IMG/VR virus record: IMGVR_UViG_3300047352_000276
Location: 1 to 54,994 of that record
Reading direction: 5' to 3' (one strand)
DNA length: 54,994 nucleotides
Source of the DNA: a virus
In this document: positions 4,549 to 51,688 of the stretch, one piece after another
Position numbering within the stretch: the stretch's first letter is position 1
Layout of the letters: every line of letters begins with the position of its first letter
Program-made: the position numbers and the translations under genes
The notes under the pieces: generated by a model
What the model saw: the letters and a program-made list of their open reading frames with translations, nothing else
The model's database searches: none
Told to the model about the DNA's origin: nothing

Positions 4549-7362
4549 ATGTTGAACCTCAAGACACGCACAGAGTATTCGTTCCGCAAGGCATACGGCC
4601 CCATACAAAAGGTTGTTGAGTGTTTTGAAGACAAGGCTGTTGGAATATGCGACACAGGAACATGGGGCCACGTCGCATTCTCCAAGCACTGCAAAAAGTC
4701 TGGCATCAAGCCTGTGTTTGGTGTTGAGATATCTGTGGTCTTAGATGCCAATGACCGTTCCAAACAAGCCGACAATCCGATGTCATTTCTGGCTTGCAAC
4801 AATGATGGGTTGGCTGAGATATATGAGCTTGTGTCCCGCAGCACATCCAAAGAGAATTTCTACTATTATCCCCGCATAAGCTATTCAGACCTGTTCGATG
4901 TCAGCGAAAACGTGATAATGTTGTCCGGATCGCACCCAGACTGGTCGATGCTTCCTTTGACCAAAAAACACAATCTTTACGTCGAGCTTGGACCAATGAG
5001 CTCTCCGAAGTCAGCTGAGTGGGCTGCTCAAAAAGGCTTCAAGACCATAGCCACCAGCGACAACTTTTATCCCAAGCCATCGGACAAAAAGGCTTACGAG
5101 GTTTTGTGTGGCCGTAACCGTACAGATCGCAGTGGGCCCATGCACATTCTTGATGAGTGGGAGTGGAAGGCTGCTGTGCCTTGGGGGACGCAAGAAGCCA
5201 TCGACAACACCTACAAAGTTGCAGAGCTTTGCAATGCTGATCTGCCAGTTGCGCAGATGATCGCATTTCATTCAAAAAAGACTTTGCGAGAGCTTTGCGA
5301 GGATGGTGCTCCGGCACTGGGCGTTGACCTGAAAGATCCAGTTTATGCGGCTAGGCTCAAGCGAGAGTTGGACATGATTGCCAGCAAGGAATTTGAGGAT
5401 TATTTCTTTGTGATTGCTGACATGATTCGTTACGCCAAAGAGCACATGCTGGTTGGCCCTGCTCGTGGATCTTCTGCTGGTTCTTTGGTTTGTTACCTCA
5501 CTGGCATAACTGACGTTGACCCGATTGTGCACGACCTGTTGTTCGAAAGATTCATCGACATCACCCGAGAAGATCTGCCGGACATCGACATCGACTTTCA
5601 AGATGACCGCAGAGAGATGGTTTTCCAATATCTCAGGGACAAGTACGGTGCAGAAAAAGTTGCACACCTCGGGACGGTCAGCCGCTACAAAGCCAAGAGC
5701 ACAATAGCAGAAGTGGCCAAAGAGCTTGGCATACCCGCATGGGAAGTCAATGACCTGAAAGGTGCGATCATCGAGCGCAGTGGTGGTGACTCTCGTGCTG
5801 CGTTCTGCATCCTCGACACATTCAACGACCTCGACATAGGCAAGGCTGTCTTGGAGAAATTCCCGCAGATGAAAGTTGCGGCAAAGATGGAGAACCACGC
5901 AAGACACGTTGGTGTGCATGCTGCTGGCATTCTGGTGACTGAAGACCCAGTCAGCAAATATTGCTCCGTCAGTGCGCAGACTGGTGCGGCCCAGATAGAC
6001 AAAAAAGACGCTGAAGACCTCAACCTGCTGAAGATTGATGCATTGGGCCTCAGAACACTCTCCGTCTTGCAGGACGTTTTGGATCAGGTTGGTTGGGTGC
6101 GAGACCAGCTGATCAAGTTTCCTCTGGAAGACAAAAAGGCATTCGCAATATTGAATGATGAGAAATATGCAGGCATATTCCAATTTGAAGGCTACGCGCT
6201 GCAAGGTGTGACCAGACAAATGAAAGTGCACAACTTTGAGGACGTTGCAGCCATCACTGCCCTAGCTCGTCCTGGACCACTCAACTCCGGTGGTACGAGC
6301 CAGTTTATCAAGCGGCACATAGGAGCAGCACCAGCGGAATATATGCACCCAATGACAGAGCCAATCACAAAGGTGACTCATGGTGTTGTGGTCTATCAAG
6401 AACAAGTCATGACCATTGGTCGGGAGATAGGCAAGCTGAGTTGGGAAGATGTTTCATTCCTGCGCAAAGCAATGAGCAAGTCTTATGGCAAAGAATATTT
6501 TGACACGTTCTGGGAGAAGTTCAAGGTTGGAGCTGCTGAGAACGGCATACCGGAAGACGTCGCGCAAACAATATGGGACAACATCAACACGATGGGATCT
6601 TGGGCGTTCAACCGCAGTCACGCAATATCTTACGGGATGGTGAGCTATTGGTGTTGTGTCTTGAAGAGCAGGTTCCCACTGGAGTATGCTGCTGCTTGCC
6701 TCCGTAATGTCAAGGATGACGACCAAGCTGTCAAGCTGTTGAGGGAAGTTGTGTCTGAGGGATTGACTTACAAGCCATTCGACAAATTCAAGTCCAAGGC
6801 CAACTGGTCAGTCCAAGACAATGAATTGATCGGTGGGTTGATAGGGATCAAAGGCATCGGCCCCAAAATGGCAGAAGACATAGAAAACAGGCGCAACCTG
6901 TCCCAACCATTGACCCCACGGCAAGAAACCCTGCTGAACACAGGCACGACACCCTATGACGATATTTTTGAGTGCGAAAGGAGATTTGGCCACATCAAGA
7001 AAGATCCCAAAGCCCACAACATCGGCTCAGCCATAACAGACATCCAAGACCTAGACGGGGACAATCCAGGAACATTCGTTTTCTTCGGCAAGCTCAAAGA
7101 GAAGAATTTGAGGGATATGAATGAAGCTGTCAACTTGGCCAAACGTGGTGGTCGCAGAGTTGATCGGAATAACCTTTGGTTGAACGTGACAGCTGAAGAT
7201 GACACTGGCGCAATCATATGCACAGTCGACAGGTTCAAGTACCAAAAGATGGGCAAGCCCATTGTGGAGGATGGAAAGCTGGGTGAATGGTACTTATTCA
7301 AAGGTGTGTTGAAGAATGGGTTCAGGAAGATCTATCTTGAAAAGGTTCGTAAGATGTTGTAA
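4549..7362 (+). CDS. dnaE: DNA polymerase III alpha subunit (DnaE family), replicative polymerase
   Basis: A 937-residue C-family polymerase, somewhat shorter than the ~1160 residues of E. coli DnaE. Order: PHP domain at 1-190 (degenerate, opening LKTRTEYSF where bacterial DnaE has the HxHxxYS type); palm with GPARGSSAGSLV near 305-316 and catalytic acids in PDIDIDF (D345, D347, D349) and D497 in KIDALGLRTL; fingers with VVYQEQVM and GSWAFNRSHA; helix-hairpin-helix GIKGIGPKMAEDI at about 766-778; and a C-terminal OB-fold from about 840. The tau-binding tail of bacterial alpha seems absent. A phage of this size with its own alpha plus epsilon is unusual; most short-tailed phages use family A polymerases. 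It starts one base after the exonuclease stop. Confidence 0.96.
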   Translation: MLNLKTRTEYSFRKAYGPIQKVVECFEDKAVGICDTGTWGHVAFSKHCKKSGIKPVFGVEISVVLDANDRSKQADNPMSFLACNNDGLAEIYELVSRSTSKENFYYYPRISYSDLFDVSENVIMLSGSHPDWSMLPLTKKHNLYVELGPMSSPKSAEWAAQKGFKTIATSDNFYPKPSDKKAYEVLCGRNRTDRSGPMHILDEWEWKAAVPWGTQEAIDNTYKVAELCNADLPVAQMIAFHSKKTLRELCEDGAPALGVDLKDPVYAARLKRELDMIASKEFEDYFFVIADMIRYAKEHMLVGPARGSSAGSLVCYLTGITDVDPIVHDLLFERFIDITREDLPDIDIDFQDDRREMVFQYLRDKYGAEKVAHLGTVSRYKAKSTIAEVAKELGIPAWEVNDLKGAIIERSGGDSRAAFCILDTFNDLDIGKAVLEKFPQMKVAAKMENHARHVGVHAAGILVTEDPVSKYCSVSAQTGAAQIDKKDAEDLNLLKIDALGLRTLSVLQDVLDQVGWVRDQLIKFPLEDKKAFAILNDEKYAGIFQFEGYALQGVTRQMKVHNFEDVAAITALARPGPLNSGGTSQFIKRHIGAAPAEYMHPMTEPITKVTHGVVVYQEQVMTIGREIGKLSWEDVSFLRKAMSKSYGKEYFDTFWEKFKVGAAENGIPEDVAQTIWDNINTMGSWAFNRSHAISYGMVSYWCCVLKSRFPLEYAAACLRNVKDDDQAVKLLREVVSEGLTYKPFDKFKSKANWSVQDNELIGGLIGIKGIGPKMAEDIENRRNLSQPLTPRQETLLNTGTTPYDDIFECERRFGHIKKDPKAHNIGSAITDIQDLDGDNPGTFVFFGKLKEKNLRDMNEAVNLAKRGGRRVDRNNLWLNVTAEDDTGAIICTVDRFKYQKMGKPIVEDGKLGEWYLFKGVLKNGFRKIYLEKVRKML

Positions 7363-34878: not shown

Positions 34879-35283
34879 TCACTCCACATACGCTGCAATG
34901 CTGACGCCTTCTGGCAAGACCGATGTGATCTCGTCATCATTAAGCAGCAGCATCTTGACGCCGTTGATTGTTAATTTTTGACCTGCGTATTTGCCGTATG
35001 TTACAGAGTTTCCCTCTGTTGGCCACTGGCCTTTCCATGCTTGGCCTGTGTCACGGTCTCGATACGCCAATTCACCCATCGCAAGAATTGTGCCGTGGGC
35101 TGTGAGGTATTCTTCATTGTCTTTGGAGCTTTCCGGAAGGAAAATGCCACCTTTTGTTTTAGCCTTGGCTTGATTAGGCTGAACCAATACTTTCCAGCCC
35201 AGTGGCTTGGGGAACTGGTGCGACCCTAACGTCGCATTGGTCTGCTCATCTGTGATGAGGTCTTTTGCATGCGGATGAGACAT
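34879..35283 (-). CDS. GroES-like cochaperonin
   Basis: A 134-residue protein. The beta-barrel core FPKPLGWKVLVQPNQAKAKTKGGIFLPESSKDNEEYLTAHGTIL ... GNSVTYGKYAGQKLTINGVKMLLLNDDEITSVL matches Cpn10: the mobile-loop segment TKGGIFLPESSKD is the GroEL contact, and V-x-Y-x-K-Y-A-G plus LNDDEI close the barrel. It precedes the scaffold and capsid genes in the late block, so it would direct host GroEL to fold the capsid, as T4 gp31 does. It is longer than bacterial GroES (~97), with extra N-terminal and loop residues. Confidence 0.88.
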   Translation of the reverse strand: MSHPHAKDLITDEQTNATLGSHQFPKPLGWKVLVQPNQAKAKTKGGIFLPESSKDNEEYLTAHGTILAMGELAYRDRDTGQAWKGQWPTEGNSVTYGKYAGQKLTINGVKMLLLNDDEITSVLPEGVSIAAYVE

Positions 35284-35666: not shown

Positions 35667-35719
35667 TGTTTATCCTCCTCTTCTCCAGAAGTCAACAATC
35701 GCTCTGGAGAGTGAGGGCA

Positions 35720-36445
35720 TCATTCAGAATCTCCAGCTTTAACTAAATCTTTGTAATATTGTGTTTCTCGTATTCCTTTTGATTCTATCCACTCTGCAAC
35801 GTCTGCAGGGTTATAATCATTGGGAGGAGAAGGAACTTGATATGTTGGTTTATGCATCGGGAACAATTTTTCTGGATTCTCTGCCATAAAAAGTCTAGGT
35901 GTTATTTCATCACCATATTGAGATCCATATTCATAAACATCAGCCTGTCCCATGTATTTCTGAAGTGTCCCTAAAAACTCAGGACTCTCTTCAGCAATCT
36001 CGGCAACATCCTCCAAAGCTGAATGAACTGGGACTTCTCCCATTTTTTCTGTTGCAAATTCGACCATGCCAGGATTCATATCATTTTCTTGAAAATACAG
36101 ATATTCAGCCATGTCTCTCTCAAGAAGCTCTTGTGGGGTGACGTTTTTCCCTGTGACAGCTCTATATGCTTCTGCTCCAAATTCTAATTCTTGGTCCATA
36201 TTTTTAAAAAAAGATGAAGTGACTTCAGAAAGTGATTCAGCAACCTCTTCAGCAGACTCTCTCGCCAATGAAGAAACATCTGGCAAAGCACCTGAGGCAA
36301 TTTTGCCAGCAGGAATTTGACTTATGGCTCCTACAATTGGAGCTGCAACAGCTCCTGTCAGGAATCCTCTGCGGCCGACATCTGTATCGCCTTTGTCAAT
36401 TACGGACTTTAAAAAATTAGTAACTATTCTTGATGTCGTTCCCAT
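35720..36445 (-). CDS. Virion-region protein with twin-arginine-like motif
   Basis: A 241-residue protein of unknown family. Residues 24-42 read GRRGFLTGAVAAPIVGAIS, a close fit to a Tat signal (RRxFL plus a moderately hydrophobic stretch), here 24 residues from the N-terminus, followed by acidic helices (ARESAEEVAESLSEV, EDVAEIAEESPEF). The next gene carries a similar RREVMGG motif. Whether it is exported or whether the motif serves membrane insertion during DNA entry is unknown. The DNA is more A/T-rich than the capsid genes. Confidence 0.6.
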   Translation of the reverse strand: MGTTSRIVTNFLKSVIDKGDTDVGRRGFLTGAVAAPIVGAISQIPAGKIASGALPDVSSLARESAEEVAESLSEVTSSFFKNMDQELEFGAEAYRAVTGKNVTPQELLERDMAEYLYFQENDMNPGMVEFATEKMGEVPVHSALEDVAEIAEESPEFLGTLQKYMGQADVYEYGSQYGDEITPRLFMAENPEKLFPMHKPTYQVPSPPNDYNPADVAEWIESKGIRETQYYKDLVKAGDSE

Positions 36446-37683
36446 CAGTCAATGATTCCTTCTTTTTTAAACCACTCGCCAACTTCAGCTTTAGTCATGA
36501 AATAAGGCTCACCCATCAACTCTTCAATTACGTAATATGCATCATCCTCATAACCTGTTGGTGCTTGGGTTCCGAACTTCTCGAAATAATTGTCCAGACC
36601 TGCCTCGTCACTATCAAGCCAATTCTTAATGTTGTCACCCTCGTCAACTAAGCTATCAAAAACTTCATCAATCCCTTGAATGCTTTCAAGAGCCATATCA
36701 GCAGCCTCCCTCGGGCTGACATCATACTCTTCAACAACGTCATTTACTAGGTCATTAAAGCTGCGAGTTTTCCTAACACCTTCTGATAAAGCTGCAAGCT
36801 CTGAAGGTGGTGGGACTCTCTCAACAGCTGCCTTGACTGGAAGTGGAATATCATCAACAATCTTCATCACCGATGGGGCTGCGGCTGTTACACCCAAAGC
36901 AGACAAACCACCCATCACTTCTCTGCGATTCACTGTTGTTGGATCAGGCAGGTTGCCCAAAACACCATCATCGTCGTATTGTTGAGTTGGGACTTCGCCT
37001 GTGATCATCTCGTCCAAGTTGTCTTGAACTTTGTCAGCTGCGACGATTGCGTCAACCTTTTCGCTGCGTGGGACTGCAGCCTTTGAAGTGATAGACTTCA
37101 ACCAAGCTAGAGCTGGACGAGTCATCGCTTTGGTCAAAGGGAATGCTTCAGCTACAGAGAATGCACCACCAACAACCCCAGCTAAAGCATCTAATTTGCT
37201 TTCAGCTGTTCCCAAGTCTCTGTAGGCTTCATTAGCTGCGAAAACCAATCCAGCGGGAGTGATGTCTGCAACGCCAAAGCCTTCCGCAATGCTTTGATTC
37301 GCGTCGCCTGTCAAATTTCCAGCGAACTTGCGAGCCTCATATGGGTTCATGCCAAGATATTCTGCGGCACTCGCAATAGAATTTTGAGATTTCTGTCTCC
37401 AGCTTTCCTCAGGAACATCAGACGGCCTCAAATAACCTTCTCTGAAAGCATCGTAAATTTCTGATGGGCTCCCCCCTTTGGAATAAACTTCTGAAAATGA
37501 CTCTCCAGGAATTTCCGACATCTCATTTGAACGACCAATTTTAGTCGGGGCTATGGTGCCTTGGCGCATGATGTAATTCACCATGTTCTCATAGTTGTCG
37601 TCGCCAAACTTCTGTGGTGGGAGCTTTTCACGATCTGCGAATATGCTGGATGGTTCAACGTATTCTCTAAGTGGATCTGCCAT
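36445..37683 (-). CDS. Virion-region protein with internal Tat-like segment
   Basis: A 412-residue protein. Residues 100-190 contain Ala-rich helices (GLVFAANEAYRDLG, LDALAGVVGGAFSVAEAFPL). Residues 251-272 read VNRREVMGGLSALGVTAAAPSV, again an Arg-Arg motif plus a hydrophobic stretch, but internal. The remainder is acidic (VVEEYDVSPREAADMALESIQGIDEVFDSLVDEGD). Its helical, membrane-seeking pattern suits a protein carried in the virion and released into the cell. No family recognised. Confidence 0.6.
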   Translation of the reverse strand: MADPLREYVEPSSIFADREKLPPQKFGDDNYENMVNYIMRQGTIAPTKIGRSNEMSEIPGESFSEVYSKGGSPSEIYDAFREGYLRPSDVPEESWRQKSQNSIASAAEYLGMNPYEARKFAGNLTGDANQSIAEGFGVADITPAGLVFAANEAYRDLGTAESKLDALAGVVGGAFSVAEAFPLTKAMTRPALAWLKSITSKAAVPRSEKVDAIVAADKVQDNLDEMITGEVPTQQYDDDGVLGNLPDPTTVNRREVMGGLSALGVTAAAPSVMKIVDDIPLPVKAAVERVPPPSELAALSEGVRKTRSFNDLVNDVVEEYDVSPREAADMALESIQGIDEVFDSLVDEGDNIKNWLDSDEAGLDNYFEKFGTQAPTGYEDDAYYVIEELMGEPYFMTKAEVGEWFKKEGIID

Positions 37684-37868
37684 CAGACTTGCCCTCCGGA
37701 AAGTTGTTGCGTGAGTATTTGTAGCGTCTCTTGGAAACCTTTGTCAAGCTCCTTGGCTGCCATGGCGAACTTGCGTGGACTGATCTTTTTGATCTTGCGC
37801 TTTTCTAGAAAGCTCTTCGCCGCACGAATCTCTGCATTGGCTACTTTTTTAATGGAGGATCTACTCAT
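37683..37868 (-). CDS. Small basic helical protein
   Basis: A 61-residue protein: KKVANAEIRAAKSFLEKRKIKKISPRKFAMAAKELDKGFQETLQIL. Highly basic N-terminal half, helical throughout. It overlaps the ART-like gene by eight bases. Possibly a partner or immunity-like cofactor of its neighbour; no family recognised. Confidence 0.6.
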   Translation of the reverse strand: MSRSSIKKVANAEIRAAKSFLEKRKIKKISPRKFAMAAKELDKGFQETLQILTQQLSGGQV

Positions 37869-38652
37869 CTTGTTCTCCTGTGGATAATGAGCTCAATGCA
37901 CCAGCAGCCAACGGCACAGAAGCGAGTATTTTGCCTGACTTGGCTTGTGCTGGGTCAAAATTTGCAAATTGCGAACGAATTTGGTTTGGCTCTAAAACTA
38001 TTGTGCTCATAGATCCTGGATCTTCGCCTTTGTTCACATATTGAATGCTGTCGAACCCTTTTGAATTTAAAAAATCAATTATCCAGCGGTCTTTGCCTCC
38101 TGGATAAATTTCATCTGCTTCGCCGAATGGAACTCCATTAAATTGGAAATTTTCTGCAAAATATCTGTTATCAGTGAAAGTTTTTCCGTCTGGCTTTTCA
38201 TATTTTTTGGTGACTTTTGCTGTGTTAAGCTCATCGCTTGAAATTCCATATTTCGATACAGCAAGTTGCTTGTTATTTTTATTTGGTGGGGTTGCACCGC
38301 TGATCCCAATTTCTGAAGAAATTCTATCCCAAATATTGTTTGCATCCCAAGAAGAAAGGGAGCCAGCATAAGTATTTTCTTTTAAAGTTAGTGGTCTTTC
38401 TGCTTTTAACCTAACAGGATAAATGGATCCAACCATATCACTGGATCTGCCTTGGTCCTGAACCGATCTCAAATCTCTCAGGCGTTCGTAAGCTGCTTCT
38501 GGTGTTCCAAAGTGAAAGAATTCTCCTGATTGTTTGAATTCTTCAATATCTGGACTTAATGATCCATGATAAAACACTTTGTCTGAAAAACTAGACAAAA
38601 AGTCAGCAACACCCTCGACTGTTTTTACTCCAAGCCTACTTAAAGCTGACAT
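37861..38652 (-). CDS. ADP-ribosyltransferase-like (ART-fold) protein
   Basis: A 263-residue protein. KVFYHGS at 25-31 (Y28-H29-G30) begins the ART core in the H-Y-E class; HFGTPEAAYERL and IYPVRLKAERPLTL follow, and the end FDSIQYVNKGEDPGSMSTIVLEPNQIRSQFANFDP matches the GFDxIxYxNxxE...S..vxxPxQIKS..N pattern of phage polyvalent-protein ARTs. The Glu in NKGED or LEPNQ is the likely catalytic acid. The C-terminus (GKILASVPLAAGALSSL) is hydrophobic. Such enzymes ejected with phage DNA modify host proteins, as T4 Alt does. Activity is inferred. Confidence 0.72.
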   Translation of the reverse strand: MSALSRLGVKTVEGVADFLSSFSDKVFYHGSLSPDIEEFKQSGEFFHFGTPEAAYERLRDLRSVQDQGRSSDMVGSIYPVRLKAERPLTLKENTYAGSLSSWDANNIWDRISSEIGISGATPPNKNNKQLAVSKYGISSDELNTAKVTKKYEKPDGKTFTDNRYFAENFQFNGVPFGEADEIYPGGKDRWIIDFLNSKGFDSIQYVNKGEDPGSMSTIVLEPNQIRSQFANFDPAQAKSGKILASVPLAAGALSSLSTGEQDE

Positions 38653-38653
38653 A

Positions 38654-38911
38654 TCACCATGCCCTGCAAGACCAGTATCTTGCTTTTGTTTTTGGTCCAG
38701 GATTATCGCAGTTGTGACGAGACCGGAAGTTGCTCCTGCGGCCTTTTTGGTTTTTCTTGATTCGCATGTTTGGGTCGCCGAATGTTACACGCTTGACTCT
38801 GTCGCCATCCTTGACGTAAACCACAGACTTCTTTTTGCCGTAGCTCGTCTCACCCTTGCCGATCCTGCGAGGCTTGTTCAGCGTCACCTTTTTGCCTTTG
38901 TAGGTTGCCAT
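38654..38911 (-). CDS. Conserved basic Cys-containing protein (FGDPNM family)
   Basis: An 85-residue protein: ATYKGKKVTLNKPRRIG ... VVYVKDGDRVKRVTFGDPNMRIKKNQKGRRSNFRSRHNCDNPGPKTKARYWSC. The FGDPNM...RRxxFRxRHNCDNPGPKTKARYWSCxxW signature is shared by many marine phages, in virion-gene contexts. Two Cys and one His could bind zinc. ATG 38911 is preferred over a TTG three bases upstream. Confidence 0.75.
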   Translation of the reverse strand: MATYKGKKVTLNKPRRIGKGETSYGKKKSVVYVKDGDRVKRVTFGDPNMRIKKNQKGRRSNFRSRHNCDNPGPKTKARYWSCRAW

Positions 38912-39114: not shown

Positions 39115-39258
39115 TCACTTGTGGACTTTCTGCACGTCGAATGATGCCTTTCTGACCGCACCCTTGTGGGGTTTGTATTCGCCTTTCATCAGCTTGAAAC
39201 CTTTGCCAGACTTCATCCAATGGAATCCTTTTGGGGCATCAACTGCTTTTTTTGCCAC
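39115..39258 (-). CDS. Tiny basic protein (PKGFHWMKSGKGFKLM family)
   Basis: A 47-residue gene read from the bases: GTG 39258, stop TGA 39117-39115, with GGGAAGAAAA before the start. It includes APKGFHWMKSGKGFKLMKG and KASFDVQKVHK, a pattern I know from short marine-phage proteins. It begins inside the end of the upstream gene and is followed without gap by the next. Confidence 0.65.
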   Translation of the reverse strand: MAKKAVDAPKGFHWMKSGKGFKLMKGEYKPHKGAVRKASFDVQKVHK

Positions 39259-39493
39259 TTTTCTTCCCTTTCCAGCTCACACGCTTCTTGGATGTTTTGC
39301 GCTTGGCTGCTGCTTTGGCTGACTTGCTTTTGCATTGCGCCATTGTTGGCCGACAGGCGGGATATCCTCGTTTGCTTTTGGTTCTGGACTTCCTGCCGCA
39401 TGGCTTGCCAGTCTTGCAATCTACCCAGCCTTTGCCTTTGTTCTGGCTGAACCACTCCCTGAGGCCACCGCTGGTGCTACTTTTTTTTGGCAC
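39239..39493 (-). CDS. Basic Cys-rich small protein (GWVDCKTGKPCGR family)
   Basis: An 84-residue protein. GGLREWFSQNKGKGWVDCKTGKPCGRKS ... KRGYPACRPTMAQC is a distinctive four-Cys signature found in several marine viruses. The C-terminus is Lys/Ser-rich. GTG 39493 is chosen because homologues begin just before GGLxxWF and a longer frame would run back inside the neighbouring gene. Zinc or nucleic-acid binding is likely from charge. Confidence 0.7.
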   Translation of the reverse strand: MPKKSSTSGGLREWFSQNKGKGWVDCKTGKPCGRKSRTKSKRGYPACRPTMAQCKSKSAKAAAKRKTSKKRVSWKGKKSGKKSS

Positions 39494-39632
39494 TTTTCTT
39501 ACCCCAGTTTTTGGCACCAACCTTCCGACACTTGACAAGAGCACCAGACCCATACGCCGAAGGCCACGTGCCGCCTTTGCGAGTGTAGCGTGCTTTTACT
39601 TTTTTGTAGCAAGCGTCCTTCTTTTTTGCCAT
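39477..39632 (-). CDS. Tiny basic protein (ACYKKVKARY...SGALVKCRK family)
   Basis: A 51-residue gene read from the bases: ATG 39632, stop TAG 39479-39477. It contains DACYKKVKARYT and PSAYGSGALVKCRKVGAKNWG, a recurring unit in marine phages and, to my recollection, in algal viruses. It overlaps both neighbours by 1 and 17 bases, a sign of tight coupling. Confidence 0.7.
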   Translation of the reverse strand: MAKKKDACYKKVKARYTRKGGTWPSAYGSGALVKCRKVGAKNWGKKSAKKK

Positions 39633-39757
39633 CAGTTTTTGCCTCTGTAGCCAGCAGCTCTTATTGCGCGACCTTGCCTTTCGGCTTCAGCCCTAGTCTT
39701 GTAGACTTTGCCAGACTTGCCCCAGCGATAGCCTCCTTTGACTTTGCGGACAGGCAC
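39632..39757 (-). CDS. Tiny basic protein (GGYRWGKSGKVYKTRAEAE family)
   Basis: A 41-residue gene read from the bases: GTG 39757 (overlapping the upstream stop as TAGTG), stop TGA 39634-39632. GGYRWGKSGKVYKTRAEAERQGRAI is a small beta-hairpin plus helix pattern common in phage structural cassettes. It looks like a DNA- or RNA-contacting mini-domain; the function is unknown. Confidence 0.65.
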   Translation of the reverse strand: MPVRKVKGGYRWGKSGKVYKTRAEAERQGRAIRAAGYRGKN

Positions 39758-50078: not shown

Positions 50079-50155
50079 AGGCAATCTGTGCTTCAACGTG
50101 CTTTCCATCTTTTCATGTTGGGGTGCAGATTGCCGACGATTCAGAAAGGAACATC

Positions 50156-51688
50156 ATGCAACAAACAAAAAGATTCATGAAGTTGTTTCGTGGTTACGAA
50201 CACGCACATGGACAATATCGAGTTCAGAAGACAGAAGCAGACGGCAAAATGTCTGGCCGTGCACTGACCATCAGCGAGCCAGCCACCCAAGAGAATTTTG
50301 AGTCTCACCTGAATGGTGGCGACTACATCCTAGGCATCATCATGCTGCGAGAAAACAACTCTTGCAATTTTGGTGTGATCGACATTGACATCCGAGGTGA
50401 CGTAAAGCTCAACGAGAGTTTGGAGTCTCTGGAAGAAAAGATACGCTCCACCCCATTGGTGTTGTGCAGGTCAAAGTCTGGTGGCGCACATTTGTACTTG
50501 TTCTGCGAACCTGCCATAGCAGCCATTGACATGGTCGCCAAGCTCAACGAGTTTGCAGCTGGGCTAGGGTACGGTGGCGCTGAAGTTTTTCCCAAGCAAA
50601 TCAGCCGCGCAAACGAACGTGATCGTGGCAACTGGATCAACCTATGTTATTGGGATGGCGACAAGTCTGAGCGGCATGCAATCCATGAAGGCAAAAAGCT
50701 CAACCTGAAAAAGTTTTTAGATCTTGCGGAGAAGAAGCGCACCACCTATGAGGCTCTGGAAAACTTCAAGCCTGACCTGACGAACAAGTTTGAGGATGGG
50801 CCGCCATGCCTTCAACACATAATGACCATGGGCTTCCCAGAAGGTGGACGAAACATTTCTTTGTTCAATGTGGGCGTTTATTATCGCAAGAAGAACCCAG
50901 ACGATTGGCAAGAAGATCTGATGAGGTTCAATTACGAAAGCATGAGCGAACCCCTGCCCTCTGGTGAGGTCAATGGCCTGATCAAGTCTGTCAGCAAAAA
51001 AGACTATGCCTACACTTGCAAGCAATCTCCAATTTGCAACTATTGCGAGAAGTCCAAGTGCATGAAGCGAGAGTTTGGCATTGGTGGGATCGGTGGTGGT
51101 CAAGCCATAGAGATAGATGCCATCACGAAGTACGAAACTGAGAACAGACAATCCGTGCGATGGTACATCGAGATAGGTGGTGAGCGAATAGAAGTCACGA
51201 CCCAACAACTTTTGGACCAACGCCAACTGCAAAAGCTGTGTGTTGAAAAGCTCAACAAGTGTCCGAGCACAATGCCAGGACAGCGTTGGGAACAGCGCAT
51301 CAACGAGCTGTTGACCAGTGTTGAGGTGATCTTGGACCCAGACGATGCATCACCCCAAGGCCAATTTGAAAAGATGCTTGACAGCTTCCTGACTGGCAAA
51401 GTCCAAGCTCGCCAAAGAGACGAGATCATGAATGGCAAGCCATGGCACGACATTGACGATGGAAAGGTTTACTTCCGATCAGAAGACCTATTTATTTATC
51501 TTGAGGCTAGGAGGTTCAGATATCCATCCCAGCACCAAGTCTGGTCTTGGCTCAGGACTGTGGGTGGTGACCGCAAGGCATTCCGAATCAAATCTAAGCC
51601 AGTCAAGGTCTGGTCTGTTCCGGCTCCAGACTTCTATCAAGACGACGATGACTTGAATATTCCGAGTGGCGTGACAGAGGAGTTTTGA
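50156..51688 (+). CDS. AEP-type primase (archaeo-eukaryotic primase/PrimPol-like)
   Basis: A 510-residue protein. Catalytic core: FGVIDIDIRG with D76 and D78, then RSKSGGAHLYLF with the Ser-Gly-x-His motif (H112), and AEVFPKQ near 145. These are the DxD and sxH signatures of archaeo-eukaryotic primases. A zinc cluster C288, C294, C297, C302 (CKQSPICNYCEKSKC) follows, as in primase PriCT/zinc segments. The C-terminal 200 residues may bind DNA or helicase. ATG 50156 follows GAAAGGA. No helicase domain is fused, so unwinding must come from another protein. Confidence 0.85.
   Translation: MQQTKRFMKLFRGYEHAHGQYRVQKTEADGKMSGRALTISEPATQENFESHLNGGDYILGIIMLRENNSCNFGVIDIDIRGDVKLNESLESLEEKIRSTPLVLCRSKSGGAHLYLFCEPAIAAIDMVAKLNEFAAGLGYGGAEVFPKQISRANERDRGNWINLCYWDGDKSERHAIHEGKKLNLKKFLDLAEKKRTTYEALENFKPDLTNKFEDGPPCLQHIMTMGFPEGGRNISLFNVGVYYRKKNPDDWQEDLMRFNYESMSEPLPSGEVNGLIKSVSKKDYAYTCKQSPICNYCEKSKCMKREFGIGGIGGGQAIEIDAITKYETENRQSVRWYIEIGGERIEVTTQQLLDQRQLQKLCVEKLNKCPSTMPGQRWEQRINELLTSVEVILDPDDASPQGQFEKMLDSFLTGKVQARQRDEIMNGKPWHDIDDGKVYFRSEDLFIYLEARRFRYPSQHQVWSWLRTVGGDRKAFRIKSKPVKVWSVPAPDFYQDDDDLNIPSGVTEEF

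What the first reader, a model, noticed from the sequence alone, without database searches (positions are those of the whole stretch)
37861..38652. ADP-ribosyltransferase-like protein in the virion gene block
FYHGS at the start, IYPVRLKAERPLTL, and the C-terminal GFDSIQY.NKGED....SMSTIVLEPNQIRS..ANFDP fit the phage ART domain found in polyvalent and ejected proteins. In the late block, it may be packaged and injected, acting on a host protein at once as T4 Alt does. The basic small protein overlapping it (37683-37868) could be its partner.
Basis: partly seen in the sequence, partly recalled or inferred. Interest (0 to 1): 0.65.

Follow-up and report, generated by a model that had tools for sequence, protein, structure and literature searches.

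The report
Phage ADP-ribosyltransferase-fold protein in swappable cargo slot
A marine phage gene encodes a protein with the fold of NAD-using toxins; it sits in a slot of the virion gene block where related phages carry nothing or quite different predicted weapons, many of them bearing similar end-tags, which suggests exchangeable cargo carried in the virion and delivered to the host.

Summary
The ORF is real: minus strand, 37861-38652, 263 aa. It is an ADP-ribosyltransferase (ART)-fold protein: Pfam ART-PolyVal E=1.7e-6 (29.3 bits, just under the 31.2 cut-off), and every top structural match of a moderate-confidence AlphaFold model is an ART (RES toxins, diphtheria toxin, PARPs). It lacks the canonical H-Y-D active site. 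It belongs to a divergent "HFGT" sub-clade and keeps all that clade's invariant residues (H29, H47-F-G, Y205, N207, E210, S216). The gene occupies a slot between two conserved small genes. Near-identical phages (98-99% flanks) lack it exactly, ATG to ATG; others carry a PBECR5 nuclease, other ARTs, or large unknown proteins. In these phages unrelated slot and neighbouring proteins share N-terminal leaders (four proteins in phage CRP-902, including a GNAT and the nuclease) and a C-terminal "PxxxGYGALxxxGE" tail found only at C-termini (35/1053 against 0/6557 internal segments). Best reading: virion cargo effector, injected like T4 Alt, consuming NAD+ or ADP-ribosylating a host target. Packaging, catalysis and target are inferred, not shown. 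The overlapping 61-aa basic protein is not a dedicated partner: it persists when the ART is absent.

The parts
37861..38652 (-). ART-fold (HFGT sub-clade) putative cargo effector, 263 aa
38575..38652 (-). N-terminal leader MSALSRLGVKTVEGVADFLSSFSDKV (residues 1-26), shared with other slot and block proteins, some with non-ART cores
   Evidence: 25/1052 N-termini match against 0/5470 internal segments
38566..38568 (-). H29, strand-1 His of the ART fold (21/21 in the clade)
38503..38514 (-). H47-F48-G49-T50, strand-2 motif (H, F, G 23/23) in place of canonical Tyr
   Evidence: HFG was one of two search patterns, so partly ascertained
38023..38025 (-). E210 (Y-x-N-x-x-E motif, 22/22), probable catalytic acid of the clade
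38005..38007 (-). S216, strand-5 Ser (22/22) where PARP or diphtheria-type ARTs have Glu or Asp
37864..37938 (-). C-terminal hydrophobic tail SGKILASVPLAAGALSSLSTGEQDE, akin to tails of other slot proteins; last residues D-E-stop overlap the next gene's start
37683..37868 (-). 61-aa basic protein, conserved 3' boundary of the slot (67-70% identical in CRP-901/902), not ART-specific
38654..38911 (-). HVA1-family 85-aa basic protein, conserved 5' boundary of the slot (91-92% identical in CRP-901/902)
36445..37683 (-). 412-aa unknown protein of the variable block, with an internal twin-arginine hydrophobic element (about 36859-36930)
35720..36445 (-). 241-aa unknown protein with a twin-arginine hydrophobic element near its N-terminus (about 36305-36376); missing in some near-identical phages
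34879..35283 (-). GroES-like co-chaperonin (Cpn10), downstream limit of the variable block
   Evidence: PF00166, 4e-14

Best explanation
The protein is a virion-cargo effector. An N-terminal leader (about 26 aa) and a C-terminal hydrophobic GAL tail, of types also seen on other proteins encoded in this block, flank a single ART-fold domain of a divergent HFGT sub-clade (H29/H47/E210/S216). It is most likely made late, taken into the particle through these end-tags, ejected with the DNA, and uses NAD+ in the host, either ADP-ribosylating a host macromolecule or hydrolysing NAD+ as the structurally nearest RES toxins do. The gene is an exchangeable cassette gained and lost whole at one slot. Shown: ORF, fold family, clade residues, slot polymorphism, shared leader and tail types, purifying selection. 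Inferred: packaging, ejection, catalysis, target, and that the tags do the targeting.
For: Pfam ART-PolyVal 1.7e-6. AlphaFold model with 24 sequences: pLDDT 66, 80-93 in most conserved core blocks, pTM 0.63. VIA: MbcT Z 8.0, ParT 8.0, NatT 7.5, diphtheria toxin 7.4, then tankyrases and PARPs, all of the top 50 being ARTs. Foldseek viral: 46 matches at E<=1e-3, many annotated ART-PolyVal; an injected-type vRNAP of a Roseobacter phage lies just outside (1.1e-3). All clade invariants present. Exact ATG-to-ATG absence in L035 and L043, whose flanks are 98-99% identical. Slot contents: empty in 23; ART; PBECR5 (PF18814, 1e-15); others. CRP-902 gp65, gp66, gp68 (GNAT) and gp72 share a leader, z 5.9-14.3, with unrelated cores, z -0.6 to 0.7. 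The window's leader type also occurs on non-ART cores. PBECR5-type tail at 35/1053 C-termini against 0/6557 internal 30-mers. T4 precedent: diverse internal proteins sharing only a capsid targeting sequence (PMC3012670).
Against: No virion proteomics or enzymology. The Pfam score is just below the curated cut-off. The canonical strand-2 Tyr and strand-5 acid are absent. Model confidence is moderate, and Z of 8 or less alone could reflect a common arrangement. The window's own 412- and 241-aa neighbours do not carry the ART's leader (the 241-aa one scores z 2.3 against it), so leader sharing is shown in relatives rather than inside this genome.
Confidence: 0.6

Rival explanations
1. Packaged or not, the domain is a pseudo-ART: with the strand-2 Tyr and strand-5 acid gone it binds NAD+, ADP-ribose or a protein without catalysis, for example as a decoy or sensor against NAD-based host defence.
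For: M215/S216 in place of the acid. Other slot ARTs also have Ser or Thr at that place (L069, L068, L128), while L081, L127 and L076 keep Glu or Asp.
Against: E210, H29, H47 and S216 are invariant throughout the clade, which is unlikely for drifting pseudoenzymes; Ser is also one of the three active residues of RES toxins (PMC12457610).
Confidence: 0.2
2. The protein acts inside the producing cell late in infection (host take-over, lysis timing, superinfection exclusion) and is not packaged; the shared ends serve membrane or chaperone targeting rather than capsid targeting.
For: The C-terminal tail is hydrophobic, and neighbours carry twin-arginine, Tat-like elements (PF10518 at 0.0099 in L057).
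Against: It lies between portal and co-chaperonin/capsid genes. Related domains (ART-PolyVal, PBECR, GNAT) are the stock of virion-embedded polyvalent proteins (PMC5512222). T4 sets the precedent of leader-tagged internal proteins.
Confidence: 0.25
3. A toxin-antitoxin or addiction pair with the overlapping 61-aa basic protein.
For: 8-base gene overlap (ATGAGTAG) gives translational coupling; related clades include toxin-antitoxin ARTs (PMC5512222).
Against: The 61-aa gene is kept unchanged in 23 empty-slot loci and next to unrelated slot genes; the overlap arises from where the cassette is inserted.
Confidence: 0.03

Closest known systems
ART-PolyVal (Pfam PF18760; ARTs of polyvalent proteins, Iyer et al. 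2017)
   Same: ART fold, strand-1 YHG, G-x-D and Y-x-N-x-x-E motifs, xPxQIRS end; HFGT relatives such as Tenacibaculum pT24 gp156 (71 bits) and Tunturi_5 (66 bits) pass the Pfam cut-off
   Different: 29.3 bits, below the 31.2 cut-off; H47 and S216 instead of Y and D; a solo domain with cargo-type leader and tail instead of a domain of a giant protein
Phage T4 Alt and T4 internal proteins (IPI-III)
   Same: Predicted virion-borne ART; a diverse cargo set sharing an N-terminal targeting leader
   Different: Alt is of the R-S-E clade; no evidence here of leader cleavage; no sequence relation of the leaders to the T4 one was tested or noticed, and a C-terminal tag is added
RES toxins (MbcT, ParT, NatT, RES of P. 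putida)
   Same: Nearest solved folds (Z 6.7-8.0); conserved Glu and Ser; they consume or modify NAD+
   Different: Strand-1 His instead of Arg; no Xre antitoxin; whether the Glu takes the same place is not known
Roseobacter phages CRP-901/CRP-902 (CRP-901-type)
   Same: Closest isolates (portal 74% identical), same slot borders
   Different: The slot holds a PBECR5 protein (plus gp66 in CRP-902) instead of the ART; the window also encodes a PolIII-alpha polymerase, whereas CRP-901-type phages are reported to lack a DNA polymerase gene

Membership tests
ART superfamily (fold) | ART alpha/beta fold | tested here: met
   AlphaFold model matches only ARTs at the top: MbcT 8.0, ParT 8.0, diphtheria toxin 7.4, PARPs 6.6-7.1; viral library 46 matches E<=1e-3, many ART-PolyVal
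ART-PolyVal (PF18760) | Pfam curated score cut-off 31.2 bits | tested here: not met
   29.3 bits, E=1.7e-6
ART-PolyVal (PF18760) | His in strand 1 | tested here: met
   H29, 21/21
ART-PolyVal (PF18760) | Tyr in strand 2 (H-Y-D, PMC5512222) | tested here: not met
   H47 (FHFGT), as in the whole HFGT sub-clade, including members that pass the Pfam cut-off
ART-PolyVal (PF18760) | Asp in strand 5 | tested here: not met
   M215-S216; position 215 is Asp in 12/22 clade members, S216 22/22
HFGT sub-clade defined here (working group, not a database family) | H29, HFG, Y-x-N-x-x-E, strand-5 Ser | tested here: met
   All present; HFG and DS[WYH] were search patterns, H29, Y205, N207 and E210 were not
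T4 Alt / R-S-E ARTs | Arg in strand 1, Ser in strand 2 | tested here: not met
   H29 and H47
RES toxins | Arg of the R-E-S triad | tested here: not met
   H29 in strand 1; no RES profile match in Pfam
RES toxins | Xre-type antitoxin partner | tested here: not met
   Neighbours are HVA1-type and 61-aa basic proteins kept without the ART
T4-type leader-targeted internal head proteins | Common N-terminal leader on unrelated proteins | tested here: met
   CRP-902: four proteins, z 5.9-14.3, unrelated cores; L072: shared leader on five proteins. Window leader type on non-ART cores in relatives
T4-type leader-targeted internal head proteins | Presence in the virion and leader cleavage | not testable with these tools
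   Needs virion proteomics
Polyvalent proteins | Two or more effector domains in one polypeptide | tested here: not met
   One Pfam domain in 263 aa

The most novel reading that the evidence does not exclude
The leader and tail are a general virion-cargo targeting system of CRP-901-like marine phages: a two-ended counterpart of the T4 capsid targeting sequence, with which the phages load interchangeable single-domain effectors (ARTs, PBECR5 nuclease, GNAT, unknowns) at a slot that gains and loses whole genes ATG-to-ATG. It is, in effect, a polyvalent protein split into separately swappable parts.
Probability: 0.4. Interest if true: 0.8.

Novelty: new variant of a known kind. Interest (0 to 1): 0.6.

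Why it matters
If true, abundant marine roseophage-like viruses carry an exchangeable arsenal in their virions with recognisable address labels. The labels would let injected effectors of unknown function be found by tag rather than by homology, give a handle on how proteins are loaded into such capsids, and make it testable which host defence or process each swapped effector answers. For ARTs, it draws attention to a conserved HFGT sub-clade with an H-H-E-S site that has no studied member known to me.

Tried and rejected
First AlphaFold run with nine mixed slot ARTs was poor (pLDDT 44) and was replaced by the HFGT alignment. phmmer and profile search of PDB sequences found no relative. The genome-contig scan found no relative of the query; NCBIfam none. 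Foldseek's top PDB row, an A4 cyanophage pre-ejectosome chain (E 4e-3), could not be backed: neither the A4 internal proteins scanned with Pfam nor the clade profile show an ART there, so it is not used as evidence. I first took the lost strand-5 acid as a sign of a dead enzyme; the 28 HFGT loci showed Ser there throughout the clade and an invariant E210 instead, which weakened that reading. Toxin-antitoxin pairing with the 61-aa gene rejected. Leader and tail are absent from the portal-GroES interval of the more distant HTVC023P and DSL-LC04. Paper searches for an earlier description of such tags found none in the held library, which is weak evidence of novelty.

Full report
OBSERVATION. The window is a viral metagenome record of 54,994 bases. 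The structural genes around it run in one direction: terminase (PF17289), SU10-type portal, several small genes, an HVA1-type basic protein (38654-38911), this gene, a 61-aa basic protein (37683-37868), proteins of 412 and 241 aa, a co-chaperonin (PF00166), a scaffold-like protein, the major capsid protein and an SU10-type adaptor. The closest isolates are Roseobacter phages CRP-902 and CRP-901 (portal 74% identical).

WHAT THE PROTEIN IS. Pfam gives ART-PolyVal, E=1.7e-6 over residues 25-229, 29.3 bits against a cut-off of 31.2. Sequence search of solved structures finds nothing. A tblastn with a distant relative (L029) led to a group with a characteristic HFG[TD] motif in phages (Pag-Yong1 large polyvalent protein, Tenacibaculum pT24, Tunturi_5) and on plasmids of Variovorax, Sphingosinicella and Erythrobacter; pT24 and Tunturi_5 pass the Pfam cut-off with 71 and 66 bits. 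A further scan gave 28 loci, many of them stretches of ORFs of more than 1,000 aa, a few of about 200 aa. In the alignment of 24 sequences the counts without gaps are H29 21/21, H47, F48 and G49 23/23, Y205 and N207 23/23, E210 22/22, S216 22/22; position 215 is Asp in 12 of 22 and Met here. HFG and DS[WYH] were search patterns, so those columns are partly ascertained; the others are not. The published active site of ARTs in polyvalent proteins is H-Y-D (PMC5512222); here it would be H29-H47-E210-S216, in the whole sub-clade. Equating H47 with the strand-2 Tyr rests on strand order in the model (strand 46-49) and alignment.

FOLD. AlphaFold with that alignment gave pLDDT 66 (most conserved core blocks 80-93), pTM 0.63. 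The best structural matches are MbcT Z 8.0, ParT 8.0, NatT 7.5, diphtheria toxin 7.4 and tankyrases/PARPs 6.6-7.1; all fifty rows shown are ARTs. Foldseek against viral models gives 46 matches at E<=1e-3, many named ART-PolyVal or from polyvalent proteins; a virion RNA polymerase of a Roseobacter phage lies just outside at 1.1e-3. RES toxins also have a conserved Glu and Ser and act on NAD+ (PMC12457610), but need an Arg that is His here.

THE SLOT. A scan with the 61-aa protein gave 80 loci of 202. Together with the window, CRP-901 and CRP-902 that makes 83 places; in 69 the HVA1 border was found. In 23 of these the HVA1 gene abuts the 61-aa gene (empty slot). The window's ART is in 12 (window included). 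Other loci carry other ARTs (L068, L069, L071, L076, L081, L072, L078), PBECR5 proteins (PF18814, 1e-15 in L101; annotated 'nuclease' in CRP-901/902), proteins of 833-1189 aa, and others. L043 and L035 are the same phage kind (neighbouring genes 98-99% identical) without the ART, and the joint is exact: in GGTGAT|ATG the ATG of the ART is replaced by the ATG of the 61-aa gene. L046 has the ART followed by an extra 166-aa gene. In L045, a more distant genome (portal 87.8%, other genes down to 79%), the ART is 97.2% identical, which fits recent exchange. Alleles show dN/dS mostly of 0.1-0.3 with few differences.

THE TAGS. In CRP-902 the PBECR5 protein gp65, the GNAT gp68 (PF00583, 2e-4), and gp66 and gp72 of unknown function share their first 20-30 residues (z 5.9-14.3, 0/200 shuffles reach it) while their cores do not match (z -0.6 to 0.7); L072 shows the same for several proteins. 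The window's own leader (MSALSRLGVKTVEGVADFLSSFSDK) matches 25 of 1052 N-termini and 0 of 5470 internal segments; most are ARTs of different sub-groups, but some have non-ART cores (L067, L056, L053/054, L038 149 aa). A PBECR5 tail profile finds the ART tail of L081 (6.5e-6) and several large proteins; as a plain query it matches 35 of 1053 C-termini and 0 of 6557 internal 30-mers, across at least eight unrelated cores. The window's ART tail is of this type but at the threshold (score 38 in its L046 form), so it is among the least certain of the listed matches. The rows are not independent (many loci are related), so the counts are descriptive. The tags are missing in the same interval of two more distant phages.

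MECHANISM. T4 internal proteins are a diverse set that share only a capsid targeting sequence (PMC3012670), and ARTs are often encoded near head genes (PMC9503650). By analogy I infer that the leader and/or tail route these proteins into the particle, and that the ART is ejected and acts on NAD+ and a host target. No step of this is shown. The 61-aa gene is not an ART partner, since it is kept in empty slots and beside unrelated slot genes.

VERDICT. The ART is a new, non-canonical relative of ART-PolyVal; by the strict test it is not filed as a canonical member, because the strand-2 Tyr, strand-5 Asp and curated score are not met. The more interesting part is the slot and the shared ends, which I found no earlier report of in the held papers.

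Noticed in passing
window 36859-36930 (-) and 36305-36376 (-); also L066, L067, L068, L069, L071, L127, L053, L057, L073: Recurrent twin-arginine hydrophobic element (type SRRxVLxGxAAAPVAAGALSEIP) inside proteins of this block, at the N-terminus or in the middle; looks like a Tat signal, and its end resembles the ART tail. Unexplained.
   Followed up: partly
CRP-901 gp66 and CRP-902 gp65 (L032:12321-13880, L031:11260-12801): Annotated 'nuclease'; a homologous slot protein (L101) matches PBECR5 (PF18814, 1e-15).
   Followed up: yes
window about 35693-35699: L035 and L043 carry about 600 bases more here than the window, a second presence/absence site in the same block.
   Followed up: no
L158:2618-3450 (Sphingosinicella plasmid p1): Solo HFGT-type ART (155 aa) whose start overlaps the end of an upstream 122-aa ORF, a possible toxin-antitoxin pair.
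   Followed up: no
window 4549-7362 (+) and 50123-51688 (+): PolIII-alpha DNA polymerase with PHP domain, and a TOTE-type primase domain (PF22548), in a relative of CRP-901-type phages, which are reported to lack DNA polymerase and primase genes.
   Followed up: no
L068:6308-7069, L130:2917-3441: Further ART-like proteins in the same blocks next to the slot ARTs, so some phages carry two or more different ARTs.
   Followed up: partly
window 39115-39757 (-): Run of several small lysine-rich ORFs between portal and slot, perhaps DNA-binding virion proteins.
   Followed up: no
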